From the NCBI RefSeq assembly GCF_018873765.1, contig NC_057925.1:11853568-11917567 (forward strand): a DNA stretch of 64,000 bases, written 5' to 3'. This DNA comes from Telopea speciosissima. Lineage: Eukaryota; Streptophyta; Magnoliopsida; Proteales; Proteaceae. This document shows, piece after piece, positions 12,678 through 62,439 of this stretch; positions within the stretch are counted from its first letter, which is position 1; each line of letters starts with the position of its first letter. The notes below the pieces were generated by a model, which did not search any database, was not told where the DNA came from, and saw only the letters and a program-made list of their open reading frames with translations. The position numbers and the translations under genes are program-made.

Positions 12678-14243
12678 GGGTTTTTTACAATTACCACCCC
12701 AAAAACTTTGATATCTACTATTACCCCCTAAAAACTTTCAAACAACTGCTACCCTCCCCTGTTGCATACTAATAACTAACTGCCCCCCACCGTTACATAC
12801 CCGTAACGGAGGGGGTTAGTCGTGAGAGTGTGCCGTTGTCATTGATTTTTTAAGACCAAAATACCCTTATGTCAAAACAAAATAAAACAAATCTTCAAAT
12901 GGGACCCTTCCCCTCTTCACTTCCTCTTCACTTCACTTGCACTTCATCCTCTTCACTTCCTCTTCACTTCACCTGTTGCAGCAAATCAGAGGAAGAACTT
13001 CGTCGGCGGCGTTACAACACTCATCCTCGAACTTCGTCAGCGTGTACAGAGGAAGCAAAACGAGAATACGAACAGAAAAAAGAAGATACCCCCAAAAGAA
13101 AAATTTGATAAGAACCCAATAAACAAATCAAATCAATCAAATGGGAAGAACCCTAGGAATGGTTTACAAGTTGTTCTGTTTGTCCTTGATTTCGATCACT
13201 CTATTGTATTTAGGGAATTTGGCCGTCGTTCATGGCCGGATTCCAACGACCCTTGATGGGCCATTTGAACCTGTCACTGTTCCTTTTGATGAAAACCTAC
13301 GTGGGCATGCTGTGGAAAGGTTTAGGAGACCCATTTCGTTTTTTGCAATTTTGTTCCCATTTTAGGATCCAATTTGTTCAGAAACACAGAATTGGGTGTA
13401 ATCGAGGAGGGTTTGCTTTGAAACGATTGTGGATAGAAGGGGAGAAGATTGGTTTTGACCCATTCGTTTGCGAGGGTTTGATTTGATGACATATTGGTGA
13501 TTTGGAACCATGACAGCTACTTCAAAATTGGTCTTGGTAAGGGATTTGAGGATTTCAGGTTCTGGTTCATAGAGGAGAAAGAAGAAGGCGGGAGGTGTTT
13601 CTTCTTCTTCTTCCCTTGCACATGAACTCCCATTCGTCTCCCATCATACCGCATCTGGTTTCCCACTGGCATCAATTGCATAGAAGAAACCATCTTCTCC
13701 AAACGCTGCAGAGATCAGAGGTCGAATTCTATTTTATTCCTCTGTTAACCTCTAATTTTAATTCAGGGTTTTGAGCTTTCCTGAATCTATATCCACCTTA
13801 ACGTTTGATTTTTTTTTCAAACCTTAACTTCTTGAATCTAAATCCATGGAAATGGATTTTGGTGGTTCTGTGTTTTCTTTGGCATGTTTATCTCATTTGG
13901 CTTGATTTGAATCAATGAGAATGGTTAATTTATCATTGGAGAGGTCATTTTTCAAACCCTAACTTCCTTCGCCAGAGAAGGAAGCTGACGATGTTCTTGT
14001 TCCTCCGGTTTGCTGCAAGTGATGAAGTGAAGAGGAAGGGTTTGGACGAAGGGTATTTTGGTAATGTATAATTCGTTACAACAACACAATATCACTACTA
14101 ACCCCCTCCGTTACGGGTCTGTAATGGTGGGGGTCATTTTGTCATTAGTATGCAACAGGGGAGGGTAACAATTGTTTGAAAGTTTTTTTGGGGGGGATAA
14201 TAATAGATATGAAAGATTTGGGGATGGTAATTGTAAAAAACCC
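12678..14243. mobile_element. Pack-MULE 1 (Mutator-like, long TIRs, carries a PAP exon)
   Basis: Both ends read gggttttttacaattacca, and the inverted repeats continue for some 250-320 bp (about 12678-13005 and 13985-14243). They share ctttcaaacaa, taccctcccctgttgcat, cccgtaacggagggggttag, accaaaatacccttc, and a CTTC-rich inner part. The flanks ttcttttaa and ttattttta match at 7 of 9, as expected for an old 9 bp MULE duplication. The interior holds a purple acid phosphatase exon and no transposase, so the element is non-autonomous. Confidence 0.88.
13141..13331 (+). pseudogene. Captured first exon of a purple acid phosphatase (PAP15/PAP13 type)
   Basis: From an ATG, the peptide has a hydrophobic signal sequence (about residues 8-31), then GRIPTTLDGPFEPVTVPFD and LRGHAV. 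This is the mature N-terminus of plant PAP15/PAP13-like phosphatases (phytase-type metallo-phosphoesterases). Homology stops just before the expected DLPDTDPRV segment, at an AAAG|GTTTAG step that looks like the donor of intron 1. What follows seems to be retained intron. The metal-binding core is absent. It lies wholly inside the MULE terminal repeats, so it is a captured fragment, not a gene. Confidence 0.85.
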
Positions 14244-15563
14244 TTATTTTTATTTTCAAAATATTTTTAAGACGGGTATAAAGCAGTTTTTAAAAATAAA
14301 TTGGAAATTACACATCATATTATCAAATGGTGTTATTGTCATGCAAATTTTTCCGAATATGCATGAGAGATGTTACCATTCTTTCATTGGAAAAAAAAAT
14401 AAAAATTTATGCTAGATCAAAATGGCCCCACAAAAAAAAAAAATAAAAAAAAAAATTGGTTATAAATGATTCGACATCTTAATGGGTAACAATTATTAGG
14501 ACATTATTACGAACCCATCCTTTTGAGTTCCTACAGCTTTCTTGTTCTTCTCGTTCTCCAACTTTCTTCTTCGATTTGAATTGAAGCTTCTCAATCCTGT
14601 TGAATTACAGAGTTGAAACAACTAGTAAGTAAATTTGATGCCCTAATTTTTTTCTTGAATTGATTATCTCCACCCCTTGTTTTTTATGAGCTCTGTTGAA
14701 CTTAGTTTATTCAAATTAGTTTATCTTGGTCTGATCATCTGTAAAATACTGAATTTCATTTGGTTATCTTTACAAACTTTATATTTTGCGATGGATTATG
14801 CGTGTGTGGTCGTCGATTACAAGAGAGTTACCACCCGAAGTTGCCAATTTCTCTACCGGATAATGGCGTATGTAGTGATTTCTTTACCCAATTCATTCCC
14901 TGATACTCATAATTTCTCCTCCTTCTAACCTCTGTTTGGTTTGCAGGAATCCAAACATCTGGGAATTGCATTGAATCAATCAGGTAGAGATATTTGGGAA
15001 TCATTGCAATCGCAGCAGCTTTGTTCTCTGTGCTTACATTGGGAATAATCGACTTCTATTCCTTAAATTCTGGAGTTATATTAGCCAAGTGCCATCTGTT
15101 TGATCTTCACAGTATTAGCTTGTGGGCTGGTTCAGTATTTGAAATTGTTATAATTTCCTTGAATCACGATTCTAGACTTTGGATCTGCTATCCATTAATG
15201 TATTGGATCTGTTTGTCTTAATAGATTCGATAGAGCTATTTTTCATTTCTTAGAGACTGTTGGCTTTGCAAAGACAGAGAGGTCCTTATGAGGTTGGTGT
15301 CTCTTTTTTTTTTATTGTTTTTTTGGTAGAAGAAAAGGTTGGTGTCTTAGTAGTTGATGTTGGTTGCTCGGAACAGAGTTATATAGGATGCTGGCCGGCC
15401 GCTGTGGGATTCATGGGCATTTTAGTAAAGTGGCATCATCTATTAGCAACCAACAACTCCATTTGATCATGGGACCTGGTGTGTAAAATTATCCTTATTT
15501 TTGGGGGATGGGTAAAAATTTGAAGCAGGCATAACAGCGAGTTGATTGTTACTAGCTGGTATT
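14244..15563. other. Unassigned stretch with transcript-like look
   Basis: No gene is recognised. At 14520-14640 the sequence resembles a 5' leader. An AG-bounded, exon-like block lies near 14946-14985, and moderately open plus-strand patches follow (14994-15221, 15260-15466). None matches a family I know. Confidence 0.25.
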
Positions 15564-15703
15564 AAAATCCTCTGCAGTACCGTCGGGGCGGCGGTGCATA
15601 TTTGGTGGTACATCAGAGGCCATGTGTGCCATGTATGCCACCTGGCCTCTGCTGTGTCATCAGATGTGCACCGTCACCCCGCCGGTACTGCAGAGGATCT
15701 TTT
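15564..15703. mobile_element. Foldback MITE, near-palindrome
   Basis: The arms aaaatcctctgcagtaccg and its inverse cggtactgcagaggatctttt flank ggcggtgca/tgcaccgtc and a short loop. About 140 bp form a single hairpin. It is non-coding, with no clear target duplication. Confidence 0.75.
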
Positions 15704-16358
15704 GCAAGACAGATTCACAACTTGAAGGTAATGGCCCCAAAATTTACTAAGGTTCATAAGAGTGAAAACTGAGCTGGGTTTAAAAAGAGGACAGAAAAAA
15801 GAATTTAATCCAAATTATTTTTACGTGGTGCTGATACGCCAATTCCAATTAGTTGTAGAATTGTTCAAAACTGAAGGTCTCCAAGATTACTGCAGTTTAA
15901 GTGCTTGAATAGTAAGACACTAGGACATGGTTACTTGTTGATATACAAGCTTGTGTGTAGAAACACTTCAGCTGTACACCAAAATTAAATTATTTTTTTT
16001 CCTAATCTGTTGTAATCCTCTCTCTCTCTTCTTGAACAGCCATCTTTAAATTACTCACTTATGTAGGAATTTGGTGTGTATGTGGAAAGTCTCATTAGCC
16101 CACCATATTGATCCAATTAAGGGGTCTACTTGCTTGGTTTTGGCGATTCACTTGGAAATCTTGTGATTTGTGAATGATGAGCCAAATTCAAATGTATCAA
16201 ATGTGGAACAATTGGACAGTGATGGTTCGTGTTCACACCACTTGTAAATTGTAATAGATAATGGTTGGCCCATTCATTAAACAGACAGCTTCGTAAGTGG
16301 GTTAGACGAATCAAATGGAGTCTTAAGTTTATCAAGAGTTGGTTGCTTACTTCCTTGG

Positions 16359-16925: not shown

Positions 16926-19173
16926 TAAACTATGTTGTCTATACATTGCTAAATCATGGTAAACACTTCCCAAAAAAAGACAAATCATCAAACAAAAAAA
17001 AACCACAATGAATGGAAGTGCATGTAATAGTTGAAGACCACTCACTAGTATATATATATATATATATATATCTATATATGAACTCATATTTCATTGCTAT
17101 TTTTTCACTTGATCGATCTATCTTTCTTTTACTTTATCTTTTCTATTATATATTTTTTCTATATTTTTAATTTTTTCAAAATATTGATACTCTTTTTATT
17201 TTTTTTAATATTCAATTACTCATTTAAAAATTAATTTCCTTATTCCTCTCATCTCTCATGTTCTCTTCTCATATCCTACCTTCCTAATACGGCCGAGCAT
17301 CCCAATTTATATCTTTCTAAGTTTCCTTGTTTATCTAAACCAACCCTCTCTTGCATTATTATTATTTTTTTTTCTATTCTTTCCAAAATTATTGTTAAAC
17401 TTACTAATTTTGTTAGATTTATTTTTTATTTTTCAAAGACTTTTATCCCCCAACGGAATCGTGCATTCTCACACCCTCGATCTTCTACCCTCGACTTCCT
17501 TTGCAGAGAGCGAGTTCTCCATCCCTGTAAACTCTTCAAGCACTCTCTTCTCTCTCTCTCTCTCTCATCCTCTCCATAACTTCCCCCTTTGTTATGTGTT
17601 CTCTCTCCCTGTTCGGTCCTTGTTAAACGTAGGTGATTTCCCTTGTTTCGTCTTTTATGACCATAAAAACTAGAGATGTAAACGGCTAGAATTCGGCTCG
17701 AATATGACAATTACGCTTCCGAATCCGCTTAACAAATGCAATATCCGCCTCCGATCCGTTTAACTGGCGGATATGTAAATCTTTGATCAACTTCGAATTC
17801 GATAACGTGTCGAACATTCAAGATATCCGGATATCCGAGCCGTTTGTTGATAATCACCGGAGCGAGCATCTGGTTTCAACACTAAGTTTCAGATCTGTAG
17901 CAGAGGCGTTGATCATCATCACATCATCTAATTTCACCTCTTAATCTTCCAGAACTGTTGCAGACGTGTTGATCAACATCGCATCATCTGATTTCACCTC
18001 TAAATCTTTAGTTCTTTAGTAGAGGCGTTTATCAAAACCTTCGGTTACTACTGGAGTTGGAACTGAGGCGATCTGATCGTTTGAGGATCTGAAGTTTCAT
18101 CTCCACATAATCAAAGCTTACACCACGAGAGAGAGTGGGGCATAGAAGGTTGCCATTACCAGAGAAGGATTGACCTTTCGTGGCGTCCATGATTCTGTTG
18201 AATGAAAAAAACAGAGTATAACCCAGTATATATATGAAAAGGGACGAGAACAGAGCGGCGGCCGAAAACCCTGTAGCTACAAAACCCCGGCAAACCCCTT
18301 TTATTTCCCAGTTGCAATCTCTGTGGTAGAGCAGCGTCGGTGGCTTTCAAAATCTCCGGCGAAACCCACCGACGAAGACCTTATTTACCAGAGTCATGAT
18401 CTCTCTGGAACCCCACCCCTCCCTAACATTGGAACATGAGACTCCAGCTCGCAATCAGACTCCAAATTTGGAGTTCGGAAAGATAAGTTCCTGGAGGTTC
18501 CCTAGATTGTTTGGGGACTTCAAAATCAGAAAATTGTTGTTGCAAGGGCTTGTCTGACTGCAAGGATGCTGAACAGAACACTGTTGATGCCTAACTTAAG
18601 TGCTTCATTGTTTTACAATGAATTCGAACTATCACAATTTATTTCCTTTGATAAGATCTTTACTTTTGGAAGGTTTAATTCCTTCTGTAAAAGGGTTTGT
18701 GCATCTGGGTTGTTTCTCAGGTATTTCTATTCGAGCTAGAGCATTTGAGCTTCAAAAAGGAAGTGAACTGTAGAGAGTGGTTTGAATCAATTGAGACAAA
18801 TTAAAGAAGGTTCAACTGATTATGTTGAGGTAATTCGAATCATTGGTAAGAATCCATTTTTGTGGCATGACCGTTGGCCGGATTATGCCAAGTTCTTGGA
18901 ATGTTTAGTTTTTGTAGATAATATAGATGAGGAAGCCAAAAAAGTTGTGTCTAAGATTAAAGAAATGGGAAGTAGCTTGAGAGTTGATGACTTTGTTGGG
19001 AATAACTTTTCTACATCCCTTTTCTAATCTTATAGTACTTGAGAGGACACAGAAATTCACCAGAATAGTTGTGCCAAGATCATGTGGCATGGATGAAAGA
19101 TTGTTCTATTATGCCAATTATATTTTTTGGGAAAATCTGAGGGCTCCTCAGAGTTGGATTATAGATATGTCTG
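16926..19173. other. Gene-free stretch with low-complexity and tandem repeats
   Basis: An (AT)n tract lies at 17048-17079 and T-rich DNA at 17100-17450. A hAT-like left end, tagagatgtaaacgg, is at 17673. At 17880-18045 a unit of about 68 bp (ttgatcatcatcacatcatc ... cacctcttaatctt) repeats two and a half times. A 52-codon minus-strand open frame begins at about 18192 (peptide starts MDATKGQSFSGNGN) but is unassigned. Confidence 0.4.
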
Positions 19174-19181
19174 GTTGTAAG

Positions 19182-21405
19182 TAGGGGTGTCAATGGGTCG
19201 GGTTGGGCCGGGCCTGCCTAAACCCTGATCCTGACCCTGACCCTAGAGGCCTTAACCTAAACCCTGACCCTGTCCCAACCCTGGCAGGGCCAAGAAACCC
19301 TCAACCCTGACCCGACCCTGCCAGGGTTTTCCCTAACCCGGTCTGGCCCGGTCCGACCCGACCCTTCTAGGGTCGGGCAGGGTTGGGTTGGCCCTGATTG
19401 ACCCTGTCTTGACCCTGTTTTGACCCTATCTTGACCCTGATTGATATATATCAAAGAATATATCTAAAAAAAACCTGAAAAATTCTTTAAAGAAGAAGAA
19501 TAAGAGGGGAAGGAAAGTAACAGAATTTCATAGTTGTAAAGGGAAAACAATAGATAATATAATAACACTAGCACTGCCATTTTACAACCATCAATTCGCA
19601 TAAACAAACATGACAAGAGAGTGTTATGAATGGCCAAGAATTCTACAAACTAACTCCCCCAGCGGCACCAAAAAAAAATCTTTCTCTTTACTAACTGCAT
19701 CTCAATCAATTTTAACAAGCATTTGCATCTGAATTTGTTGATGACTAGCTTCTTTCAAGCATATATAGGGCAAAAAAATGAAAGGAGAAAATTTTTTCAA
19801 AGTGTAGTCCTGGAAACATAATCAAGTCTAAAACAGCAATGAACAGCTCATCCAATTTCGCATGTCCTCAATCACCCCCAACTTCCTCTTGCTACCTACC
19901 CAATCTCTTTTTTATTAGAAATGCATGTAATTGTTTCTGTATCATCAAGCAGGTGATAATTTCTCTAAAGATATCACAACAATATAAGTTTTGCAGGTAA
20001 GGCTATGCAGAGCAGTCCTAATATAGCTAGGAAAATACAGTCAAGTCACAAGTGTACTACCTGTTTTTTTTTTTGATAAAAAAAAGGTACTACCTGTTAC
20101 AATCAAAGGACAAGAAATGGACTTGACAAAGATCCTAACCATTCATGCCTCCATTGACTTCTCAAATAATGGATTCCAAGGGGAAATTCCATAAGTGATA
20201 GGAAATCTCACTTCTCTCTACGTTCTTAACTTGTCACAGAATGCTCTAAGCCTCTCACTGGTGGAATACCATCATCCTTGGGGAACCTGAAACAGCTAGT
20301 CATTAGACTTCTCAAGCAAAAAGTCAGGAGGAGAGATCCCTCAGCAGCTGACAATCCTAACATTCCTTTCGGTCCTGCACCTCTCTTGGAACAACCTTAC
20401 GGGAATGATACCAAAGGGATCTCAATTTCCTTTAACGCCTCCAAACCCTTTACTTCCCCTTCGCTCTACAACTCTATAAATCTAGTTATGATCGCTGCAA
20501 TCGACGGGGACCCTGAGAGCCTAAGCTCTTCTCCAGCTCTCGGCTTCCCCGACATCAGATTCTTCCGTTACCGCAGATTGAGGTGATCGATTTTCAAACT
20601 CATTACATAGAGGAAAAAAAAAATTGCCGAACCCTTCGAAGAGTGGGAACCGAAGAGGGATAGAAGACAATGGAAAAGGAGCGAGGAAATTAAAGAACAA
20701 AGCAAAGTCTTTTCACGGGAGAACCCATATGACTGGGGTGGGAATTCGCCGGCCAAATACAGACCCGGATCTGCTTTCTGCCAAAAAATTGCAGGAGATT
20801 CCGCCAGAAGGAACACAGAGCAAAAATCGCCAATTGTTTGGGTATGATTGGCAAATCGTACTGAGCGGATACTTTGTGGGGTTTGGTGGGGCAGCGGGAA
20901 TTGTTGTGGCATTCTTTGTCTTTTCAGATCGAGGAAGGAAAAGGATGTTTCTTGGTCATGAACATACCTGTGTCAAGAGACCGTCGTAGCAGGTCGACTG
21001 GAGGAGAAACAAGATGCTATACCTTGATCGTAGTAGGAAAGGAGGAAGTGATGAACCAAGGATGAGAAGTAGGGTCTCGAGCGGCGCTTTCCTCAAGAGT
21101 TGGATGAAGAGTGAAAACGAAACTGGGTATTAGGGTTCACTAGTTTACCCTCAAGAGATGGGCGTTTTTGTCTTTTCCATGATAAATTGATACATTATTA
21201 CAACTATACATTGCCTATAACTAATACAGGGTCGGGTCAGGGCCGGGCCGGGCTAAGCCCGGGGTCTTATCCCGAACCCAACCCGACCCTGCCAGGGTCA
21301 GCCAAAATCTCAACCCTGACCCGCCCTTCGGGCTGGCAGATCAGGGTCAGGTCCGGGCCGGACTCAGGGCGGGTTTGGGCCAGCCGGGTATTATTGACAC
21401 CCCTA
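19182..21405. mobile_element. Non-autonomous hAT element, 2224 bp, carrying an LRR-RLP fragment
   Basis: It begins TAGGGGTGTCAAT and ends ATTGACACCCCTA. A perfect 8 bp target duplication, gttgtaag, sits at 19174-19181 and 21406-21413. About 250 bp of GC-rich subterminal sequence on the left and 190 bp on the right is built from 'gaccctg / gggtcggg' words. No transposase is seen. The middle carries a receptor-like protein fragment. A sister element with the same ends is at 55919-57720. Confidence 0.95.
20104..20990 (+). pseudogene. Captured 3' end of an LRR receptor-like protein
   Basis: In shifting plus-strand frames, 20104-20420 encodes the typical last repeats of a plant LRR receptor-like protein: [20 protein letters not shown], then GFQGEIP, VIGNLTSLYVLNLSQN, IPSSLGNLKQL, LTILTFLSVLHLSWNNLTG and MIPKGSQF. 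At 20839-20935, YDWQIVLSGYFVGFG and VVAFFVFSDRGRK match the C-terminal membrane anchor and basic tail. Between them the juxtamembrane part is scrambled. Several frameshifts and a stop make it non-functional. Intact proteins of this type sense pathogen or developmental signals at the cell surface. It lies inside the hAT element. Confidence 0.82.
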
Positions 21406-21413
21406 GTTGTAAG

Positions 21414-22695
21414 TCTCCAAGCCAGTAGCTATGGTACTGAAAACATCTCTTGTTGAAAGTGCTGCAATTCTTTTGAACTCTAAAGATCCGTTGGCCCCTC
21501 TTATTTTCAGTAATAGAATTGGACACTCTGGCTTTATGGGTTGTTATGTCTTCAAGGATATATTCTTTGTATAGAAGAGTAATAAAAAGTCACAAAATTG
21601 TTCTCATTTCTGTAAGTTGTAAAAAATTTTATTTCTTTTTTGTATGATTAACGGGTTTTACTTGTATTCGTATTCTCATAGAGAAGATTTGTCTTTTTTC
21701 CTTTATCTTGGCCAATGAAAGAGACTTAAATTTTTTTTTCTTTCAACATTTTGATTGATGTAGTAATGGAGAAAATATGAGTGCACATGGAATGATCTGC
21801 TCACTTTTTTCTCAAACCAAACAAAAGTAATCTTTAATATTTAGGGATTGTTCTTTACTCTTGACACCAAATGATCCAATTAACGTGTCACAGGCCAGAA
21901 TCAAAACAATCGAAACTCCAGTACCTACATCTTCCCATTTCCCTCTGTAATAGCATTGAGCTCTAACTTGATACAATCTCTTTAAAGTTGTTTGTGACTG
22001 AAATCTGAAACCAGTCCCCTTTTATGTAGAGCTGCTGCTTCCTGTTTCCAGCTTTTTCTTGTAGATCAGATTTGGCTACCATGTCCTGCCCTCTCAATCT
22101 TTTGGGTTAATCTTTCACTCTTCCCAATAAAACCGTTTGAACCCGTGAATTCCATTGGAACAAGCTTTACCAATAACAACACAACAGCCTATATTCAGTG
22201 TTAATTGAAGATAAAAGGAACCAATAACTAAACCATGGACCACTTCAGTCTGGCTAATGGAATGGGGTATTGAAAAGAAATTGTTTTCCTTGACATTGTA
22301 TAATACTTCAGTGAATTTAAGCTTTGTCGAGTTCTTGAAATCGAATTTGAAATTGAAGAAATCTTTTGTATGTGGGTGAAAATTTTTTCATAATGGTTAA
22401 AAAAATTGTATTTTTGTTGAGGCCATCTCTCATTTCCCTCCATTCCTCTGTCTTACACCCCTTCCATTCTCTCTCTCTCTCACTGTCACACACACATTCT
22501 TGTCCACGTGCATTTGCAAGTGCAATTTTACTAGTATATATATATATATATATAGTTCTATACACTGTGATTCATGGAATCACAAGATAAAATAAAAAAT
22601 AAAAAACATAAAAAAATCAAAGACTAAAGAAGAGTAGAAAAAAGGGTAGTTGTTGAAATCTCAAGTCTAAACCCTAACCCTCATCAACAAAACGG
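21414..22695. other. Gene-free stretch
   Basis: This continues the host DNA split by the hAT insertion. It has weak coding-like texture at 21414-21540 and no identifiable product. An (AT)n microsatellite lies at 22534-22553 and a CT-rich stretch at 22466-22482. Confidence 0.4.
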
Positions 22696-23560: not shown

Positions 23561-23601
23561 TACAAACTTTAGATATTATAGATTTAAAATGAGTTTGGTT
23601 C

Positions 23602-25211: not shown

Positions 25212-25324
25212 CTCCGATATCCCGATCGTCTCAGAATCAAGGAGCGCAAGACAATGGACTGAGAAGAACTAGAAATGTCAAATAGGAATGATTTTGCTGT
25301 AGGAAATTTGATTCATGATACAAG

Positions 25325-25852: not shown

Positions 25853-26109
25853 GACTATGTAATGTACACGATCATGCCCATCCAACGGTTGAAAGCCCGA
25901 TCATGTACCATGCACGGCTGTGTGCGAAACTCTCCTATTCTCCTAATATAATATTTATTTTTTTCTTTTATTCATCTCTCATTCTTATTTTTTACTTTAC
26001 CTTTAAATCTACATCAAAGTATGTATTGAAATGATCTAACTCCATATTGCATAACAATGATATATCGTACAATTAATGTTTATATTTAATTTTAGAAAAA
26101 AAATTTTAG

Positions 26110-34703: not shown

Positions 34704-36371
34704 GATAAATCACGATGATCCCCTAAGGTTTATCCTAAATACAGTGCGACCCCCTGTGTTATCAAAATATATATTTCGACCCCTTGAGTTTAGGGTATTT
34801 GTTACACTCAGCCCCACTCCATTAGTTGCTGATGTATTTGTCATTGATGTCTTAACATGATAAATATACCCTTAATGGGGGTGTGAGGTTACAATTTTGC
34901 CCATAAGGCAGCCCAAACTTCACACCGCTTCCCTGCTACTCCAATCAGGATTTAGGGTTCTGGTGACCTGCCTTAGGTCATCTTCAAGTCCATCACCGAT
35001 GACCTGTCTCAAGTTCTTGCTTTGACGATTTGTTGAAACCATCACCGATGACCTATGACGACGAGGGAGGTAATTTTTTTCAATGGATTTGGTTGTCAAA
35101 GATCTGAAAATTACCTCCCATTCCTTTCTCAGTTAAAATCATGGTGGACTCTCTTCTGCTCCATCTTCTCTCAGGACCCATTTTACGAAGTTTCAATGAA
35201 GGTTCTCACCGGGGTTTTTTTCTTCTGTTTCTTCAAACAAATCGGAAACTAGCAAAACCCCAAAACCCGGCCTCTTTTTCCAAATGCTTTTCTGATCCAA
35301 AGCTTTGCTTTCCTTCTTCCCTGTGGATTCAATGGAGGATGTGCGAATCAATATTGATCCACTCCCTGATTCAGTGCCACCGTACATTGAATTATGTGAC
35401 GTTAGGAAAAAATTTTCTGAGTGAATCAAATATTTCTTAGAACTGATATTTTCTCTAATTCAGATTTTTGCATCTGGATTGAAGGAGTTTGTTATTCAAA
35501 TAGCTCAGTCTACAAATAACCGTCATGAATATTTGCTGAGAATTTTGAGATATCAAACCCCTAACCTTCTTGTGTGTTTTTTTTTGTTTGGGAAAACCCC
35601 TAACCTATTCACAAAGATAACAAAGAGAGTACGCCATGGCTGATGGCCTCCTTCTTTGGTCTCAATGGTCATCCCAATCCCACCCCCCACTCTGTGACCT
35701 GCACAACCTACAGCCCCACATCACTCCTCTCTGCCTTTTAGCTTGTATATATCTCTACTTTCCACATTCTCACAGCCCAACCCTCGTGAACAGGGTGCCC
35801 TAGACTCACTAAGACAGAACTGAAGCTAAAATAAAGGGGTTAAACGTGCAAGAGGGTGGTTTTCTCCAGGGAGAAATCCAGGAATTTCCCATTCATATGG
35901 GGTTATTGGAGGAGGGCAGAGGATGGCAGTCACAATAGTGGGGTGGTCGGAGGTTGCAGCGGTGGTTGAAGAAGAAAAAAGAAGAGGAAGAAATAGTGGT
36001 GGGTCCTACTTTATTGGATCTAGATCTTCTACGTCGTGGGCTGCCCGTCCTACTGTGCTGCGCAGACACAAGGTGGAGCGCATTGACCACTTTAACGCTG
36101 CCCGAGCCTTGCCCGAATGGGGGTAAGGCGGTCATTGCACGTGGCCCTGTACAACACAAGCAGGACAAGACAGCACACCATAGAAGATCTGTGTTATACT
36201 TTTTTATGTTAGAAAAATAAGAAATTAGAATAAGATAAATTTAAGGGCAAAATTGTAATTTAAATTTTATATTAACAGCGTTCTCTTAAAGGTGTCGGAT
36301 GTATATTTTGAAAACACAGGAATCACATTGTATTTAAGGCAAACCTCAGGGGGTTGCCATGTAATTTTTCC
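34704..36371. mobile_element. MULE 3 (non-autonomous, about 1.67 kb)
   Basis: The ends gataaatcacgatgatcccct and the inverse of ggaaaaattacatggcaacc continue as inverted repeats for about 100-150 bp (ctaaggttt/ctgaggttt, aaatacagtg/aaatacaatg, ctgtgtt, acaattttgccc). It is flanked by a perfect ataaaaaaa at 34695-34703 and 36372-36380 (10 bp if the preceding c is counted). The interior has coding-like patches, for example 35330-35425 (MEDVRINIDPLPDSVPPY) and 35465-35550 (SGLKEFVIQIAQSTN). These may be captured exons, but I cannot name the gene. A foldback MITE sits at 36018-36192. Confidence 0.85.
36018..36192. mobile_element. Foldback MITE nested in MULE 3
   Basis: Arms atctagatcttctacgtcg and accatagaagatctg are inverted. 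Inner gcgcattgaccactttaacg faces gtaaggcggtcattgcacg. It is the same family as 16359-16530. Confidence 0.7.
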
Positions 36372-36424
36372 ATAAAAAAAACACATACAAAAAACTAAAA
36401 ACCACACCATGAGTCGGATCTGGC

Positions 36425-36603
36425 GGATCTTTATCACCTCTAGTTGGTTGCCCGGTCTAGTTCCCCAGTTCCTCTAACAAAGGGGGACTGAAATGACCTC
36501 TCTACCCATGCCCAAACACTCTGCTTGGGTGGGGTCCACCATCCCCCTATTAGAGGAACTGGGGAACTGGATCGGTCAGCAAACTGGAGGTGATAATTTT
36601 CCC
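36425..36603. mobile_element. Foldback MITE inside the left TIR of Pack-MULE 4
   Basis: Arms ttatcacctctagttggttg and ctggaggtgataa are inverted, and gttccccagttcctctaa faces ttagaggaactggggaac. The core is gaaatgacctctctacccat. It resembles the family of 987 and 41569. It splits the MULE end from the rest of its terminal repeat, so it came later. Confidence 0.8.
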
Positions 36604-37364
36604 TCCACCTGTCCAGCTGTGGCGGGAGCTGAACGGTCCAGTACCACTTTTAGATGGTGACATGTGGACTGAGCCGAATCCAAGGGTCTGAAAGCAAAAG
36701 GGTATTTTAAAAGGTATTAACCCATTGTAAATGCGGGTCTCTTCCTTACCCGAATTAACCCACGGATCAGTGTTCAATGTTCCTCGTCTCCTTCAAGGCG
36801 AGAAGACCAGCGTCCTCAGTGTTCCTGTTCCTCATCTTCTGCAAGGGATCCGGCGACAGAGATGACTCTTGCGACACAGGTGTACGACTGAGTGAGTCTA
36901 ACTCGATTGAGTGAGTTTCTCTCATTTTCTCTCTCTTTCATTTTCGTTTTGAAACCCTAATTCGATTTTCAATCTTGGTACAGGGGAAGTGGAACAAACT
37001 CCATCTTTGCACTCAAAGATCTTGTTCTGACTCGAACATCTTGCACAGGGATGCCCTAGTTGGCAGAAACTTGTTCTTAATGCTGCCACGGAGAGTGGGT
37101 TGTCGAGTGTTGCAGCAAATTTCACCATTTTACCATCCTGGTAGAACCCTTTCAATAACTTTGAGAGATATTATAGGATGTATCATTTATTGCTACATGG
37201 TGGATGGATGGCAGCTTTGTCATTTTGTGGAAATTTAAAAACTTTTAAGCTTCAGTCGTGCAATGGGATCGATCCGACACCAGGGCTGTTGAACATATTT
37301 GAGGTATTTGCCGCCTCTTGAACGTTTGCAGTTAAAGAGGTGCCAACCGCGAGATCAGCCAGCA

Positions 37365-37860
37365 GAGTATGAAGTCATTGATGTTAGATGTGCTTCGTCG
37401 TAATGGAGGTATTGTGGATTGGGATGTCAATTCTTTTCCTCTTAATGAGGCAATAGAGGTTGCCACTCCATTTGGGGTGCTTTTACTTAGAGCCCCCCAG
37501 CCTATTGCGAATTGGTTTTTCAGGAAAAGGTATTTGGTGGAATCCTCAGGGGATCTATTGCAAGTTCTTCTTTGATTCCGAGAGAAGTGGGGAAGGCGTA
37601 ATGCTTTTGATTCAGCTTCATATAGTGTTTGCAGGCTTGATCAGAGTAGCAGGACTTGGGTTGAAATTGACAGTTTACCTGACCGTGTGTTGTTTTTGGG
37701 CCATAATTGTGCCATTTCCTTATCGGCTCGGGATTTTCCTTAGTTTAGAGAGAACTCTGTCTATTTTGGTGAATACTTCTGGGAGGGATGGTTGGAAGGT
37801 GAACCTATTGTGGGTCATCAGAATCTGGGTGTTTTTAACCTTGAAGAAAGGAGATTTGTA
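37365..37860 (+). pseudogene. Captured F-box/DUF295 (KIB1-like) protein fragment
   Basis: Frame 1 at 37495-37572 gives RKRYLVESSGDLLQVL. The match then shifts frame and continues with SYSVCRLDQSSRTWVEIDS, LPDRVLFLGHNCAISLSARD and DFP, and further GWLEGEPIVGH, LGVFNLEERRF. These are the signature steps of the plant DUF295 domain found C-terminal to F-boxes (ubiquitin-ligase substrate adaptors). The F-box itself is absent, a frameshift lies near 37573 and a stop follows DFP. It lies between the inverted repeats of Pack-MULE 4, so it is a captured copy. Confidence 0.8.
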
Positions 37861-38493
37861 AGGTACTCCTCTTGTGCTTTGTAAAGGATCAAACCACCAC
37901 AAGTATGGGTAGTACCTAATTTTCGGTGATGTTATTTGTTTAATAATTTGGTTGCTAATAAACAAGTTCGATTGCTTATTTTTTCTTGAAGAGGATAGGA
38001 TCTTTTTGGTGACTTTTTTTTTCTTGTAATTACAAGACTTTGAAGCTTTCTTCTCATTTTGCTGAGAGAATTCAACTGCATCTTGATAACCACATGCTTG
38101 AGAGTTTTGTCTTTTGAGTGCAAAGATGGATTTTGTTCCACTTCCCCTGTACCAAGATTGAAAATCGAGTAAGGGCTTCAGAACGAAAATGAAAGAGAGA
38201 GAGTCACCACACTGAGGATGCTGGTCTTCTCGCCTTGAAGGAGATGAGGAACATGAACACTGCTCCGTGGGTTAGTTCGGGTAAGGAAGAGACCCGCATT
38301 TACAATGGGTTAATACCCTTTAAAATACCCTTTTGCTTTCAGATCCTTAGATCCGGCTCAGTCCACATGTCACCATCTAAAAGGGGTGCTGGACCGTCCA
38401 GCTCCCGCCACGGCTGGACAGGAGCCAGATCCCCATGAGTCCATCACAACTGACAACTGACAACAATGACAAGGATCTGAGTTTCCCGAGTTG

Positions 38494-39297: not shown

Positions 39298-39411
39298 GCA
39301 TGTGATTGGGAAAAATGACAATTAAGGTTACTGACATTATATATATTCTTTCTCACAGAAACAAAACTTGACACATCACCATCACATACTCTATCGAACG
39401 AATTGAGGACC

Positions 39412-39552
39412 TGACTCTCCTCTAGCCGTGGCAAGAGCTAGAGGATGTAGCCCAGCAAAAACAGAAGGCCCTCACCTGTGAAATAACTCAAACATCCTTG
39501 TTTTTGTTGGGCTGGATCCTCTAGCTCCTTCCATGGTTGTAGGAGAGCCGAA
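39412..39552. mobile_element. Foldback MITE in UGT downstream flank
   Basis: Arms ctctcctctagccgtggcaa and ccatggttgtaggagag are inverted, and gtagcccagcaaaaacag faces ctgtttttg-type sequence (gtttttgttgggctg). The orthologous insertion is at 34537-34657. Confidence 0.75.
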
Positions 39553-39684
39553 TACTCGAATGTGGGAAAATCAACGCATAGTCATTTCATTTCTTAAAAA
39601 ACAAAAAAACCATACACTATGACAGGGATTTTCTTTTTTATTTTTTGGTAATAACCATGACAAGGATCTGAGCATCCCGAAATG

Positions 39685-41109
39685 TCATCCCCGATTCCAT
39701 GACTCGGCAAGCTCGGCAAAAGCAGTCCGAGAGGACCCACCCTCGGCCCACGCAGCCAAAGCCTTCTCCTTCATTTCTCGACAGCGTTTGCTAATCTCTC
39801 TCCCCTCCTCCGAGTCAATCAGCATTCTGACTCGCTTTTCAACCTCGGCAGCAATCACAAACCCATCCTCTTCCGCCGCCTCCATTGGCAAAGCCACCCT
39901 CATCTCTTCCACCAAAACTTTCTTATTGAGAGGCTGCTCTGCATAGAGCGGCCATGCCACCATTGGCATCCCAGCACATACAGCTTCCAAAACCGAGTTC
40001 CACCCGCAATGAGTCACGAATCCACCCACCGATTCTCGGCTCAATACCTCCACCTGCGGCGCCCATGATTTCACCACCAAACCCCTGTCGCTGGTCCGCT
40101 CCAGAAACCCCTCCGGCATCAGAGCTTCAAGATCGAAATCCATGGCAGACAGCTGCATTCTACCACCGCCGATTGGTGGAGGGTTCTTCACCACCCACAA
40201 GAACCTTTGTCCACTCCTCTCAAGCCCAACGGCGATCTCTGCAATCTGTTTCACCGAAAACGCGCCTAGGCTGCCAAAACACAAGAAAATTACGCTCCGA
40301 CTCGGTTGCTTATCAAGCCAGGACAAACAATCCGCGGCACCAGATTGATCTTTGGGTTCTGCAAGCAATGGTCCAACACAGAAAATGGCCGGCGCTTGAT
40401 TTCTGATCGCATTGATTGCTTTTGGCTCTAGTGCCTCAATGGTATTTGTTATAATTCCCTTTGATTTGAGGAGATTCGTACCCAGATCCAGCATCTTATC
40501 GTAAACCTGGTTAGTCCGATCGAGAACAGATGATCCCATTTCTGTAGCTCGAATTGGGGGCAATCCTGGGATTTGGAGAACAGTAGTGTTGCCAAGCTCT
40601 CTGAAGCTCTTGTTTGTCTGGTTATGGAGGTTTGGGAGGTGAAGCATCATTGCAACAGAAGAGGCGCCAGAGGGAAAATAGTAGTAAAGAGGGATGTTCA
40701 GCTCGGTGGCAACAGGGGAGGCTGGGTGACAGAAGAAATCAATCACAAGGGCAGCAACAGAGGAGGTTTCAGAGATGGTTTGGAGGGTTTGGAGAAGGTT
40801 TGGGTTGTTGAGGCGAATTGATTCGAGGAGTATTGCGACCGGGTGGAAAGTTGGTGATGGTGGAAGGGAAGGAGGGTTGGGAAGAGCAGGTAAACGATGG
40901 AAGGTTATTAAAGGGTCTGTGTGAGAGACATGATCGATGTAAGGATTGATGGCGGCGCTTTTAAAAGAGTCGCCTGAAATGAGGACTGTTAGGGAGAAAC
41001 GTTGGTTGTAGTGGCGGAGGATAAGCTTGCCCAGCTCAACCAAAGAGACTAGATGGCCCATGGCAGGGACTGTATAGAGAACTATAGTGTCCTTCATTTC
41101 CTTCTCCAA
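39685..41109 (-). CDS. UGT88-like UDP-glucose:acceptor glycosyltransferase (474 aa, intronless)
   Basis: A complete family-1 glycosyltransferase. The catalytic pair is His19 (PAMGHL) and Asp124 (VIDFF). The PSPG box at 349-392 has WAPQ, HCGWNS and AEQ, with Trp-22 and Gln-44 for UDP-glucose. Right after the box it has PLNKKV where its relatives have HMNKEV, a change near the sugar-donor pocket that could affect rate or acceptor. GVPM is GMPM. It is the closest relative of the gene at 23793; both share the ghost flanks around them. Likely acceptors are phenolics, as in other UGT88 enzymes, but this is family inference. The chosen start is the upstream Met (MEKEMKDT); Met5 aligns with Met3 of the neighbour. 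Confidence 0.95.
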   Translation of the reverse strand: MEKEMKDTIVLYTVPAMGHLVSLVELGKLILRHYNQRFSLTVLISGDSFKSAAINPYIDHVSHTDPLITFHRLPALPNPPSLPPSPTFHPVAILLESIRLNNPNLLQTLQTISETSSVAALVIDFFCHPASPVATELNIPLYYYFPSGASSVAMMLHLPNLHNQTNKSFRELGNTTVLQIPGLPPIRATEMGSSVLDRTNQVYDKMLDLGTNLLKSKGIITNTIEALEPKAINAIRNQAPAIFCVGPLLAEPKDQSGAADCLSWLDKQPSRSVIFLCFGSLGAFSVKQIAEIAVGLERSGQRFLWVVKNPPPIGGGRMQLSAMDFDLEALMPEGFLERTSDRGLVVKSWAPQVEVLSRESVGGFVTHCGWNSVLEAVCAGMPMVAWPLYAEQPLNKKVLVEEMRVALPMEAAEEDGFVIAAEVEKRVRMLIDSEEGREISKRCREMKEKALAAWAEGGSSRTAFAELAESWNRG

Positions 41110-41755: not shown

Positions 41756-41799
41756 TTCCATTTATGCGTTATAGGTCATATGAGAATGGTTTTCGTACG

Positions 41800-45690: not shown

Positions 45691-45732
45691 AACAGGCGGT
45701 TAACTGCGATGACATCTTTTGATAAACTGATT

Positions 45733-55733: not shown

Positions 55734-55918
55734 CTTCCCTTTCTCTTTCTCTTCGTGTATAATCAGAGTTTATCCTCAGATATCGGACTCGAAGGAAGAA
55801 AGACAATGCAATGAAAAGGGAAGGTGAAATGTGAGATGTCAAGTGGGACTGATAAAGATCCTGTGCAGCTCTTTGCCCGGGCTGCACAAAGTGTTGCATC
55901 AAATCCGACTTCGGGATG

Positions 55919-56687
55919 TAGGGGTGTCAATGGGTCGGGTTGGGCCGGGCCTGCCTAAACCCTGACCCTGACCCTGACCCTAGAGGCCTTAACCTAAACC
56001 CCGACCCTGATCTAATCCTGACAGGGCCAAGCAACCCTCAACCCCGACCCGATCCTGTCAGGGTTTTCCCTAACCCGGTTCGGCCCGACCCGACCCTGAT
56101 AGGGTCGAGCAGGATCGGGTTGGCCTGATTGACCCCCACCTTGACTTTAAATTTTTTCAAAAAATAAAACATTGAAGGGTTTTACTTTGCCCATCAGTTT
56201 AGAACTCAAAGAAAAACTCCTCTACAATGGAATTATATTGAGCCTTAGTTCTTGGTAGACAATCACAGAGATGAATCCTCAACATAAACCCAAAATTTAA
56301 GAGCTTAGCAAGCTCAAATCAATCCTCCAGAACTGAGAACAAAGATCCAATAATGCAGGAATAGAGAAGAATCAGCCATAGCCAGCGAAAATAGAGTGAA
56401 CCTCTCTCAAATTTCAGATAGAAGAACTCCCACTCATCTCTCTGAAAATTTCACTTCGAAACCCCAGAAAAAATAACCCCAAATCGAAATTGTCAAACTC
56501 TATAAGAACCAGGATTTTTCTCTCCACCTCTATTCTTCTCACATCCCAGATGTTCCAACCCGTAGGGGTTCTTCTTGCCTTCGATTTATAGCCTGTTACC
56601 GTGTGCTGTGCGCCGGTCTCGATCTTTGAATCTTTGATGGTGATTATCAACAGTTTTTGCACTGAAATCACCACAAAAAACAAAAAC

Positions 56688-56727
<40 letters not shown>

Positions 56728-57720
56728 AGAAAGAAAGAAACAAAACAAAACACTGTTTCTAGGCCAAATCTTCTTGTAGTAAAAAAAGACAAGCCCCAAA
56801 AAACCTAGAAATTCCCAAAAATCTCAACAGGACCGAAAAAGTGCTAATAGCTATGACCCATGGAAATTGGTCAACTTACAAACAAATATTAACAGAAGAT
56901 GACCCTAGGTACGAGATGCAACCCTTTTTCTCGTCTCTAATTCACTTGGCAACTATATCCCTTCAGCCACATATAATGTAAAATCAGAGGTCACTAATCC
57001 AGCCAGTTCAACAAAGATTTGGAAGTGAAGCTGACTCATGAAATGAACTAGATCTTCATTCTTACTTGTCATAAGCCTAACAGTGTGTCAAGTAGCACTT
57101 GCAGAGAACTCAAAACCTCATAAGAACAGGAAGATGAACACATCTTGTTCACCACCACCACCATCATCATCAACCACACCCATGTGTGTGTGCGTACACA
57201 TCCTGTTCACCACCATCATTATCATCTTCGAAGGAATATAAGTGTGTACCTGGAGGCCGTAGTGATTGATCGTCAAGGGAATCGATTCATCGAAGCAGCT
57301 AAAAGAAAGTGAAGGAAACTCATTACTCAAGGAAGGAGACTGAGGGAACTCAGGGAAAGTGAAAATGAAAAGGAAGCTTGATAGCAGAGAAGGAGGAAGA
57401 TGGAGGCATGAGCGTCGAGCGGCGGCTTTTCGGATCTGGATAAGTGAAAATGAAAAGGGATTTAGATTTTAGGGTTTACTATTGGCTTTTTGTCTTTTTC
57501 TTTATAATATATACATTAATATATAATATTATATACCTATAACTAATATAGGGCCGGGCCGGGCTAAGCCCAAGGTCTTATCCCGGACCGGACCCGACCC
57601 GACCCTGCCAGGGTCAGCCAAAAACCCAACCCTAACCCGCCCTTTGGACTGGTAGATCAGGGTCGGGTCCGACCGGGCTCAGGGCGGGTTTGGGCCAGCC
57701 GGGCATTATTGACACCCCTA
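55919..57720. mobile_element. Non-autonomous hAT element, 1802 bp, upstream of a UGT
   Basis: It has the same ends as the element at 19182: TAGGGGTGTCAAT and ATTGACACCCCTA, with 'gaccctg' rich left and 'gggccgggc' rich right subterminal parts. Target duplication tcgggatg (55911-55918) against ccgggacg (57721-57728); both differences are C-to-T. A (GA)n tract lies at 56695-56723. No transposase and no recognised captured gene. Confidence 0.92.
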
Positions 57721-59551: not shown

Positions 59552-60492
59552 GGGAAAATTACATGCCCCTCCCTTGTACTATGGTCTAATTACACCTTCT
59601 TCCCTTGCATTTTTTCAATTACATTCTAACCCCCTCTAATTTGAAAAGAAAATTACCATTACACCCTTGCCGTTAGCATCTGTTTGTTAAGCGGTGGTGT
59701 GGCTTAGTAATATTTTTTCATAATTCCCAAACTAACCTTGGATCCTTGTGAGATGACCCTTTTACCCTTCTTCTGCAACTCCGCCCCCACCCTGCTTATG
59801 CAACCTTTGATAAAAAACGATGAGAATGGCACCTTTCCTTTTCTTCATCCTCTCAAATTTTGATTGCCTACCATGTTCTTCCCTTTCTTACCGCTACAAT
59901 CATCTTTAGTGAAGTTTCTTGTGCAGCCTCCGTTGGTTTTATTTGGGTCCACAAAATCGAAACCAAGAAGGCATATGCATCGAGCTTATTTTGTAGTTTC
60001 GGTCAGTGAGGGTTAAATGGAGACTATGATTAAAAGGGAATCAAGGGATTTTAGAGAGATAAGGTTAACCGAGAAACGGGAAACTTACTCGCTATAACTC
60101 AAATGAGAAACAATCTAGAGAGGGCTTTAGTCATGCTTGTTCCTGCTTTCGTTTTTCCAAAGTTTATTTCCCCCCGTCCCCCTAATTTGTGATTGAAACC
60201 CTCTCTTCAAAAGTAGTTCTGTAGTGTTAGTGTACCTTACTGAACTGAGCACCCATTTCCTTTTCTTGTTTGTAGAACTCAGCTAGAAGTTAAAGTGCAT
60301 CTGTTTTTTTCCCCCCTTTTTCCCTTTAGTTATTTTTTTTATTTCCTTGTAATTCTTGTGGGGATTTGGAAGCATATTGTGTTATGGATTGAGTAATTTC
60401 ATATGGTTTTATTTGTAATATTTTGATCATTCATCCAAGCTTTTGATTTGAAGCTAATGGAAATTTTACCCATGCTTTTGGGGCTGTTGAAG

Positions 60493-60664
60493 GTGAATTC
60501 TGTAAAAGAATTGAGTGGACATATTTGTTAGCTTTGTGGGAATGAAATTGAAATTACAATAGATGGAGAGCCCTTTGTTGCCTGTAATGAATGTGTTTTC
60601 CCAGTCTGCAACCCTTGTTATAAGTATGAGAGAAGAGGGAGCAATCAAGCTTGCCCTCAATGCT
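60493..60664 (+). pseudogene. Captured cellulose synthase (CesA) RING-type zinc-finger exon
   Basis: The frame reads VNSVKELSGHIC, then after an in-frame [12 protein letters not shown] and [19 protein letters not shown], then YKYERR and NQACPQC. This is the N-terminal cysteine-rich finger by which plant CesA subunits pair in the cellulose synthase complex at the plasma membrane. The eight-cysteine pattern is kept. The TAG stands where functional proteins have Gln. The catalytic glycosyltransferase domain is absent. It lies inside Pack-MULE 2. Confidence 0.88.
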
Positions 60665-60980
60665 AAGTAAGATCAGGGAAGGTAGAGATGGCGGTTTAGT
60701 GAGGGATTTAGGGCATGGTGAGTGAGGGTTTCGGTTGGTGGCAGGAAGAAGATGATGATGGAGAAGAAAAGAAAAAGAAGATCAACAGAGGTGGAGAAGG
60801 TTTAGTTGGGTTACCTACAGTTAAGGTGTAGTGAAGTGGAGAGGAAGAGATGGGGAGGTACTCCATTTTTATTCTCCTGGCTCAAAGAAGATGTCGGCCA
60901 TTGTATTTTTTCAAAACTTTCGTTTCTGTCGAAGCTTACAGGAGAAACCTTGGAGCTCGCTGGAGATGAAGGCCAGACCC

Positions 60981-61930
60981 TATTTTTTTTTTTTTAATGG
61001 AAATAAAAATTAATATTACTGAGAGAAAGGGCTTACAGAGTTATGGACAGGCCATATATTCATATAATTGCAACATTTGAAAATTATACTAGTGAAGTTA
61101 TTCATTGCATCAGCTAGATCAAAGTAATATTTGATTAAATTCCAGGGGATGCGAGTTGAGGGGGTAGGATGAAATAAGTCAAAGAGCTCCATGCTTGAAC
61201 AGATGATTTCTTTAGTTTTTGGGTTTCGTTGCTTCGCGAATCTCCATCCTTGGACAATCCCAAAAAGCTCTGCTTTCTTTGCATCTGATGTAGACTATCT
61301 ACCTGCATCTATTATTACACCCTGGCCAGCTATCAAGATTGAAACAGTCCAACTGGTTATTTTAAGATCTGGTCATATAAGCTTGCGTTGTATATCCAGA
61401 TTAGTAATCATTGGAGGAATATTTTGGGCGTGTGCTAGGTTGTGAAGATGAGTTAGATGATAATTAAAGTGAGGGGAGGGTGAATATTCATATTTTTAAT
61501 CCATTTGAAAATATCATTGAGAACCAACATCGGGTCGGCTTTGGAAGTCCCTAAAATAACCTTGTTTCTAACATTCCAAATAAAATAACTAGTAATCATT
61601 AAAACAGAGAAAACCCAGGTCAAGGATTGTTTATCAAAAACTTGAGAAGAAAAGATTGAAACACAGAGATGTGTGAGAGAAGGGCCGGAGAGGTGCTCGG
61701 TTCTTAATCCGATGGGGTCAGATGCCCAGATACGCTTAGTCCAATCACATGACAAGAAAAGGTGCCAGATTGATTCATCTTTAGATCCACATAATGCACA
61801 TGTAGGTTCGACGGGCATCCATTTTGAGATAGTCGCTTTGACAGGTAGTCCTGCATTCAAGACACGCCAAAAGAAGAGTTTAAATCTCGGGTGAATATTA
61901 ATTTTCCAGAAAAGTGCCACCATTTGGAAA
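60981..61930 (-). mobile_element. L1-type LINE, 5'-truncated, inside Pack-MULE 2
   Basis: On the minus strand, 61923-61453 encodes the zinc-binding reverse transcriptase end (zf-RVT): FWRVLNAGLPVKATISKW, CALCGSKDESIWHLFLSCDW. Beyond it (about 61440-61150) is an RNase H-like part with DAKKAELFGIVQGW. The tail is a T-run at 60981-60993 on the plus strand. The reverse transcriptase core is missing. The short match atgaag on both sides is too weak to call a target duplication. Confidence 0.85.
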
Positions 61931-61945
61931 ACATGAAGATAAGGG

Positions 61946-62215
61946 TAGGGATGTAAACGGATCGGATTTGGCTTGGATAGTGCTATATCCGCATCTGCAT
62001 CCGATTAGCTTTCGGATGGATTCGGATAGTGCTAAACGGATACGGACATGGATACAGATCCGATATTTTATCCGTGTACATGTTAATATAACTTTTCAGA
62101 TAGCTATAGCCTATCCGTATCCGTATCCGTTTAGCTTTCGGACGGATTCGGATAGTGCTAAACGAATACGGACACGAATACGAAAACGGATTTCGGCTAT
62201 TCATTTACATCCCTA
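61946..62215. mobile_element. hAT-type MITE, 270 bp, inside Pack-MULE 2
   Basis: It begins TAGGGATGTAAACGG and ends ATTTACATCCCTA. It is flanked by a perfect 8 bp gataaggg at 61938-61945 and 62216-62223. The interior is built of repeated 'ggattcggatagtgctaaac' units. Confidence 0.95.
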
Positions 62216-62439
62216 GATAAGGGTAGCAGTGTAATTTTATTTCTGATGTTTTAATATAAGGGTAAAATAGTTTTTTCCAAACTAAAACTAACAATAGACT
62301 AACACCGTCAACAAGAGGGGGTCTAGGTGTAATTGGGAAAAAAACAAGGGTGGAAGGTGTAATTAGGCCATAGTATATGGGAGGGGCATATAATTCTCCC
62401 TTGATTTTATAATATCTAATCTAGGGAGTAGGATGGAAA

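What the first reader, a model, noticed from the sequence alone, without database searches (positions are those of the whole stretch)
12678..62400. Four independent captures of unrelated host genes by DNA transposons in one 64 kb window
Two Pack-MULEs (PAP exon; CesA finger exon), a third long-TIR MULE (F-box/DUF295) and a hAT element (LRR-RLP end) each carry a piece of a different host gene, all with visible element ends and three with good or perfect target duplications. Capture by hAT elements is much less often reported than by MULEs. The density suggests a lineage with unusually active gene-fragment capture, or a locus that tolerates it.
Basis: partly seen in the sequence, partly recalled or inferred. 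Interest (0 to 1): 0.8.

Follow-up and report, generated by a model that had tools for sequence, protein, structure and literature searches.

The report
Plant transposons carrying host gene scraps
Four mobile DNA elements in this stretch of a plant genome really do carry broken pieces of ordinary plant genes, but this kind of gene theft, including by this second type of element, is already documented.

Summary
Four non-autonomous TIR elements each carry part of a host gene: E1, a MULE at 12678-14243 (purple acid phosphatase first exon, the weakest identification); A, a hAT at 19182-21405 (LRR receptor-like-protein end); E2, a MULE at 36416-38432 (KIB1-4/DUF295 propeller end); E3, a MULE at 59552-62400 (CesA zinc-finger exon). 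TSDs are 7/9, 8/8, 9/9 and 7/9. Inverted pairs this strong: 7 in the window, none in 20 shuffles.

A tandem UGT paralogue in the window lacks E2 and E4. A sits in an O-fucosyltransferase pseudogene.

hAT capture is in print: grapevine Hatvine-6 (2008), maize Ds (2011), Pack-hAT (2022). Three Pack-MULEs in 64 kb is about 6 times the rice average (P about 0.015, uncorrected for choosing this window). Parent genes, copy numbers and expression could not be tested, because no genome is held. New members of a known kind.

The parts
12678..14243 (.). E1: MULE with about 207-column TIRs (83%), TSD TTCTTTTAA/TTATTTTTA 7/9 (alternative frame 12676-14245, also 7/9)
13141..13317 (+). Captured first exon of a PAP15/PAPhy-like purple acid phosphatase (ATG, signal-peptide-like stretch, ...GRIPTTLDGPFEPVTVPFDENLRGHAV)
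   Evidence: only two PDB sequences returned, both purple acid phosphatase, N-terminus, E 0.32 / 0.091; no Pfam hit; signal peptide and PAP15/PAPhy resemblance recalled
19182..21405 (.). A: non-autonomous hAT element, 13-bp TIR TAGGGGTGTCAAT, TSD GTTGTAAG 8/8 (19174-19181 / 21406-21413)
20153..20989 (+). Captured, broken end of an LRR receptor-like protein: last LRRs (about 20153-20450) and membrane-spanning tail (about 20836-20989)
   Evidence: for the LRRs; no Pfam hit for the tail ORF, whose assignment rests on recall of RLP C-termini
55919..57720 (.). B: second copy of the same hAT family; ends 89% (224 columns) and 81% (247 columns) identical to A, interior without similarity; TSD TCGGGATG/CCGGGACG 6/8, both differences C/T
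36416..38432 (.). E2: MULE, TIR 94% over 225 columns plus an inner 90-bp pair at 94%, TSD CCATGAGTC 9/9 (36407-36415 / 38433-38441)
36431..36596 (.). MITE-like inverted-repeat element nested in the left TIR of E2 (similar stretches at about 977-1127 and 41571-41765)
37498..37839 (+). Captured C-terminal part of a KIB1-4/DUF295 beta-propeller gene, with two in-frame stops inside the match and more beyond it
   Evidence: E 1.7e-9; E 1.3e-20, profile 152-242 of 242
37037..37345 (+). Possible second cargo in E2: cysteine-containing LRR motifs resembling a plant F-box/LRR protein; no database support (approximate coordinates)
   Evidence: read from the translation; no Pfam hit at E <= 10, no relevant PDB hit; resemblance recalled
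59552..62400 (.). E3: MULE with 89-column TIR (84%), TSD TTAAGTTTA/TTGATTTTA 7/9
60493..60663 (+). Captured CesA zinc-finger exon (...[53 protein letters not shown]), one in-frame TAG
   Evidence: zf-UDP 3.6e-19; 6 of 6 PDB sequences returned at E <= 1 are cellulose synthase, best 3e-19
61456..62004 (-). ORF with a zf-RVT match (retrotransposon, LINE by recall) nested in E3; the ORF runs into the hAT MITE
   Evidence: PF13966 9.4e-15
61946..62215 (.). 270-bp hAT MITE nested in E3, TSD GATAAGGG 8/8
34704..36371 (.). E4: further MULE-like element not in the finding; TIR 75% over 85 columns, TSD ATAAAAAAA 9/9 (A-rich; right boundary chosen after seeing 7/9 and 8/9 at neighbouring offsets), cargo not identified
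   Evidence: 9 of 9 ORFs of >= 60 aa inside it without a Pfam hit; no convincing PDB match
39312..39948 (.). Tandem UGT paralogue (3' flank and gene end) that lacks E4 and E2: pre-insertion reference; 491 of 595 aligned bases identical to the joined flanks, but the bases right at the junctions align poorly
   Evidence: UDPGT 1.2e-20 for 39688-41139
18506..19181 (+). O-fucosyltransferase pseudogene fragment into which hAT A inserted; its apparent C-terminal end resumes at 21406-21456
   Evidence: PF10250 3.6e-7 for 18506-18736, 30.5 bits against a cut-off of 31.5; C-terminal parts by eye and recall; the C-terminal piece tested gave no Pfam hit

Best explanation
These are ordinary Pack-TYPE elements. 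Non-autonomous MULE and hAT transposons copied short pieces of unrelated host genes between their inverted termini, most likely as filler during repair of a break or gap in the element, were then moved in trans by transposases coded elsewhere, and have since decayed as pseudogene fragments. Shown here: element ends, target duplications, partial host-gene homology between them, no transposase among the ORFs scanned, a paralogous site without E2 and E4, and two copies of one hAT family with unlike interiors. Inferred: capture from genomic DNA rather than cDNA, trans-mobilisation, lack of function.
For: Ends and TSDs; 0 of 20 shuffles with such inverted pairs. Cargo families. Ends of E1, E2, E3 and E4 score at most 23 against each other, 59-126 within an element; A and B score 170 and 133. 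A and B share ends only, as described for maize Ds2 (terminal 200 bp plus filler) and grapevine Hatvine-6. Joined flanks of E4 and E2 align with the tandem UGT paralogue at 491 of 595 aligned positions. No MULE or hAT transposase family at E <= 0.01 among 246 ORFs of >= 60 aa.
Against: No parent gene was found, because no genome is held. The PAP identification is not significant on its own (E 0.32 and 0.091). The TSDs of E1 and E3 are 7/9 in AT-rich sequence, and the strict automatic scan found none. The LRR match is below Pfam's cut-off unless stops are read through. Roughly 60 bp around the E2 junction align poorly to the paralogue, so the empty site is not base-exact. Short decayed transposase pieces could be missed: ORFs under 60 aa were not scanned in bulk, and 18 of the 264 longer ORFs outside four excluded stretches were not.
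Confidence: 0.9

Rival explanations
1. The fragments are ordinary decayed genes, and unrelated repeats happen to lie on either side.
For: The pieces are truncated and three of the four carry stops; the window holds many other repeats; a strict TSD scan found none.
Against: Long inverted pairs with target duplications at both outer edges; the paralogue lacks E2 and E4 as units; the fragments with profile matches cover only part of their family model.
Confidence: 0.05
2. The lineage, or this locus, has exceptionally active gene capture across superfamilies, beyond what is usual in plants.
For: Three Pack-MULEs against an expected 0.51 per 64 kb at the rice density, and far lower expectations from maize. 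Two further filler-type elements, E4 and B.
Against: The window was picked because it looked rich, and the number of windows read is unknown. [quoted passage not shown] No host gene was recognised inside E4 or B.
Confidence: 0.2
3. One or more cargoes are functional (expressed chimeric exon or source of small RNAs regulating the parent).
For: The PAP exon keeps an ATG and an open frame of 74 codons; expression is known for a minority of such elements in sacred lotus (at least 10 of 1,447, PMC4053705, passage seen).
Against: In-frame stops in the CesA, KIB1-4 and RLP pieces; no Rfam match at gathering thresholds, which says little about siRNAs; no expression data here.
Confidence: 0.07

Closest known systems
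Pack-MULEs (rice, maize, sacred lotus; Jiang et al. 2004 recalled, counts from passages of PMC3903597 and PMC4053705)
   Same: MULE-type termini, about 9-bp TSD, partial host genes inside, no transposase found
   Different: Nothing that sets them apart was found; E3's TIR (89 columns) is at the short end, and parent genes are untested
[quoted passage not shown]
   Same: A MULE carrying part of a cellulose-synthase-type gene
   Different: Not compared by sequence; whether the same exon was taken is unknown
Grapevine Hatvine-6 hAT family (PMC2528002, passage)
   Same: hAT elements sharing ends, with variable interiors that include genic sequence
   Different: Hatvine-6 elements share a transposase region; none was found in A or B
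Maize Ds2 / Ds-l4 elements with gene fragments (PMC3260210, passages)
   Same: 8-bp TSD, about 200 bp of conserved ends in Ds2, unrelated filler, occasional gene fragment
   Different: Different TIR (TAGGGGTGTCAAT here); autonomous partner unknown. That paper says no hAT capture had been reported before, which the 2008 grapevine paper contradicts
Pack-hAT of Gisby and Catoni 2022 (PMC8903248; abstract, passages and section 8)
   Same: hAT superfamily elements with captured coding DNA, 8-nt TSD
   Different: Other species and TIR; no sign here of tandem fusion: no further exact TAGGGGTGTCAAT inside A or B, one three-mismatch site at 20414 in A

Membership tests
Pack-MULE (E1, E2, E3) | Long terminal inverted repeats of a MULE | tested here: met
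   207, 225 (+90 inner) and 89 aligned columns at 83, 94 and 84%
Pack-MULE (E1, E2, E3) | About 9-bp target site duplication | tested here: met
   7/9, 9/9, 7/9; the two 7/9 are AT-rich and only moderately strong, and a stricter scan missed all three
Pack-MULE (E1, E2, E3) | Fragment of a non-transposon host gene inside | tested here: met
   KIB1-4 and zf-UDP clearly; PAP by weak but specific matches
Pack-MULE (E1, E2, E3) | Homologous parent gene elsewhere in the genome | not testable with these tools
   no genome held
Pack-MULE (E1, E2, E3) | Termini related to an autonomous MULE with MURA-type transposase | not testable with these tools
   no genome held; no transposase family among the 246 ORFs scanned
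Non-autonomous hAT / Pack-hAT (A) | Short TIR and 8-bp TSD | tested here: met
   13-bp TIR, GTTGTAAG 8/8
Non-autonomous hAT / Pack-hAT (A) | More than one copy sharing the ends | tested here: met
   B at 55919-57720
Non-autonomous hAT / Pack-hAT (A) | Captured host-gene fragment | tested here: met
   LRR_1 4.6e-8 read across stops, 0.0061 without; RLP rather than RLK judged from the tail, recalled
Non-autonomous hAT / Pack-hAT (A) | Parent gene and hAT transposase with matching ends | not testable with these tools
   no genome held
Pack-MULE (E4) | Host-gene fragment inside | tested here: inconclusive
   no Pfam hit in 9 of 9 ORFs of >= 60 aa; PDB hits not convincing

The most novel reading that the evidence does not exclude
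The plant lineage captures host DNA at rates at or above rice, across MULE and hAT superfamilies at once. In 64 kb there are six filler-type elements (E1-E4, A, B). E2 may be a two-gene chimera (F-box/LRR plus KIB1-4), and one hAT family keeps only its roughly 220-240-bp ends while its interior is swapped freely.
Probability: 0.17. Interest if true: 0.45.

Novelty: new member of a known kind. Interest (0 to 1): 0.2.

Why it matters
The window is a clean worked example of Pack-TYPE elements from two superfamilies side by side, with an in-window unoccupied paralogue and a pair of hAT copies that share only their ends. Such elements inflate gene annotation and can feed small RNAs or new exons. 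It does not change what is known of the process. A genome-wide count in this species could.

Tried and rejected
Whole-genome search for parent genes and copy number: not possible, no genome held.

TSDs: a strict scan around the raw BLAST boundaries returned nothing for seven structures; boundaries were then set by eye, and E2 was first tried one base off (mended). E4's 9/9 came from choosing the right boundary after other offsets gave up to 8/9.

E4 interior: 9 of 9 ORFs of at least 60 aa without a Pfam hit (three at E <= 5, six at E <= 0.01), two unconvincing PDB hits, so it is not claimed as a capture. B interior: seven ORFs tried (three, four). The one match, Jiraiya E 0.0053 and below Pfam's cut-off, lies over an AG repeat, and I dismiss it.

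A larger hAT element enclosing the O-fucosyltransferase fragment was considered because of a hAT-like end at 17671-17685. The only opposite end within three mismatches belongs to the MITE in E3, so it was rejected. The F-box/LRR reading of part of E2 gave no supporting hit and is kept only as a lead. Rfam at gathering thresholds: no match. A Pfam PSII hit (E 2.7e-4) among the 122 ORFs was not located in the ORFs sent singly. One literature search (hAT transposon, captured, gene fragments, receptor-like protein) returned no paper; it covers only the held library.
Full report
The window is plant DNA by its content: a tandem UGT cluster (UDPGT 1.2e-20 for one copy), a ZIP transporter match, retrotransposon pieces and several DNA transposons. 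No genome is held for it, so everything below rests on the window, protein-family and structure libraries, and the held literature.

Element ends. A self-comparison of the window gave seven inverted pairs under 12 kb apart at E <= 1e-3. Twenty dinucleotide shuffles gave none in any. The last, at 25989-26638, was not followed up beyond the scan. TIR identities are 172/207 (E1), 211/225 (E2, after skipping 36425-36607 with its nested MITE), 75/89 (E3) and 64/85 (E4). TSDs are 7/9 for E1 and E3 and 9/9 for E2 and E4. Of 2601 boundary pairs tried around each, 19 (E1), 12 (E3), 1 (E2) and 2 (E4) do as well, the chosen pair included. An earlier, stricter scan found no TSD for any of them. The boundaries were then set by eye, and E4's was chosen for its fit, in A-rich sequence.

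The hAT element. A runs from 19182 to 21405 with a 13-bp TIR (TAGGGGTGTCAAT) and a perfect 8-bp TSD, GTTGTAAG. A second copy, B, at 55919-57720 matches A over the first 224 columns (89%) and last 247 columns (81%); between them only short chance-level matches appear. Its TSD is 6/8, with both differences C/T. This 'same ends, other filler' pattern is what passages of PMC3260210 describe for maize Ds2 and of PMC2528002 for grapevine Hatvine-6.

Cargo. E3 holds the CesA zinc-finger exon: zf-UDP 3.6e-19; 6 of 6 PDB sequences returned at E <= 1 are cellulose synthase; one in-frame TAG. E2 holds the C-terminal part of a KIB1-4/DUF295 propeller: 1.7e-9 for one open piece, 1.3e-20 for the stretch with X at stops, profile 152-242 of 242. 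Just upstream in E2 a stretch reads like cysteine-containing LRRs of an F-box protein. Neither Pfam nor PDB supported it, so a two-gene chimera is only a lead. A holds the last LRRs and what looks like the membrane-spanning tail of a receptor-like protein: LRR_1 0.0061, below the cut-off, for the unbroken ORF and 4.6e-8 with X at stops. That ORF returned 88 PDB sequences at E <= 1; the 60 shown are mostly plant LRR receptors, best 2.2e-35 summed over repeats but only 0.015 for the best single stretch of that chain. The tail assignment is recalled. E1 holds an exon beginning with ATG and a signal-peptide-like stretch, then RIPTTLDGPFEPVTVPFDENLRGHAV. The only two PDB sequences returned at E <= 10 are purple acid phosphatases aligned near residue 4 of the chain, at E 0.32 and 0.091 for the shorter query.

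Empty sites. The UGT fragment right of E2 and the sequence left of E4 are both paralogous to one continuous stretch, 39312-39948. The flanks of E4 and E2, with one TSD copy each removed, were joined in a script and align to it at 491 of 595 aligned positions. The match is good on both outer sides; close to the junctions there are gaps, and roughly 60 bp around the E2 site align poorly, so the exact empty site is not shown. Still, E4 and E2 appear as insertions, 44 bp apart, in the 3' flank of a tandem UGT copy. A sits in an O-fucosyltransferase pseudogene (PF10250 3.6e-7, just under the cut-off). Its apparent C-terminal end resumes after the element (read by eye; the C-terminal piece tested gave no Pfam hit).

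Independence and autonomy. Terminal 90-bp comparisons score 59-126 between the two ends of one MULE and at most 23 between MULEs. The best cross pair, E3 left and E4 right, share a similar first dozen or so bases, so those two may be distant kin. No MULE or hAT transposase family was found at E <= 0.01 in 246 ORFs of at least 60 aa. These are 246 of the 264 such ORFs left after dropping ORFs that overlap three UGT copies and the tandem array; 18 were not sent in those two calls, two of them being covered.

Mechanism. The best account is the standard one: host DNA copied into the element during repair or replication of a break, then transposition in trans. Passages of PMC8277862 argue for gap filling and template switching in animals, and of PMC8903248 for mobilisation of neighbouring insertions in plants. 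The window cannot decide between them. Inside A and B no further exact hAT end was found, and one site with three mismatches at 20414, which gives no sign of tandem fusion.

Is it unusual? A passage of PMC3903597 gives 2,924 Pack-MULEs in rice (370 Mb) and 276 in maize (2,066 Mb). Expected per 64 kb: 0.51 and 0.009; P of three or more: 0.015 and 1e-7. These are uncorrected for the choice of this window, and published counts are likely lower bounds, so the density is suggestive at most. hAT capture has been in print since 2008, and grapevine already has a Mutator family carrying cellulose synthase sequence. Verdict: a correct and careful reading by the first stage of an ordinary, known phenomenon.

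Noticed in passing
18506-19181 and 21406-21456: O-fucosyltransferase pseudogene, by eye without introns and with an internal deletion, split by hAT A; possibly a processed copy.
   Followed up: partly
61946-62215: 270-bp hAT MITE with a perfect 8-bp TSD (GATAAGGG) nested in E3, next to a zf-RVT retrotransposon fragment.
   Followed up: yes
156-923, 23793-25268, 39685-41139, 54303-55769, 38460-38751: Tandem UGT cluster: three long open copies, one partial copy at the window edge and one 3' fragment beside E2. One copy was confirmed as UDPGT, the others by similarity to it.
   Followed up: partly
32656-32668: Exact TAGGGGTGTCAAT hAT end; no opposite end with fewer than three mismatches in the next 20 kb.
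   Followed up: no
28070-28445 and 28944-29313: Direct repeat of about 376 bp, 81% identical, about 500 bp apart; nature unknown.
   Followed up: no
25989-26053 and 26568-26638: Inverted pair of about 71 columns (76%), a possible 650-bp MITE-like element; no TSD found by the scan.
   Followed up: no
45150-46226 and 46724-47392: Minisatellite-like arrays, including a 30-bp unit of about 16 copies open in several frames, and a 129-bp unit.
   Followed up: no
51738-52223: Weak gag matches on the minus strand (Gag_p24_C 0.0015, Retrotrans_gag 0.0016, both below cut-off) between two other long open frames without a Pfam hit.
   Followed up: partly
30871-63225, not located: One of 122 ORFs in this part matched Pfam PSII (E 2.7e-4), perhaps a plastid DNA insert; not among the ORFs sent singly.
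   Followed up: partly
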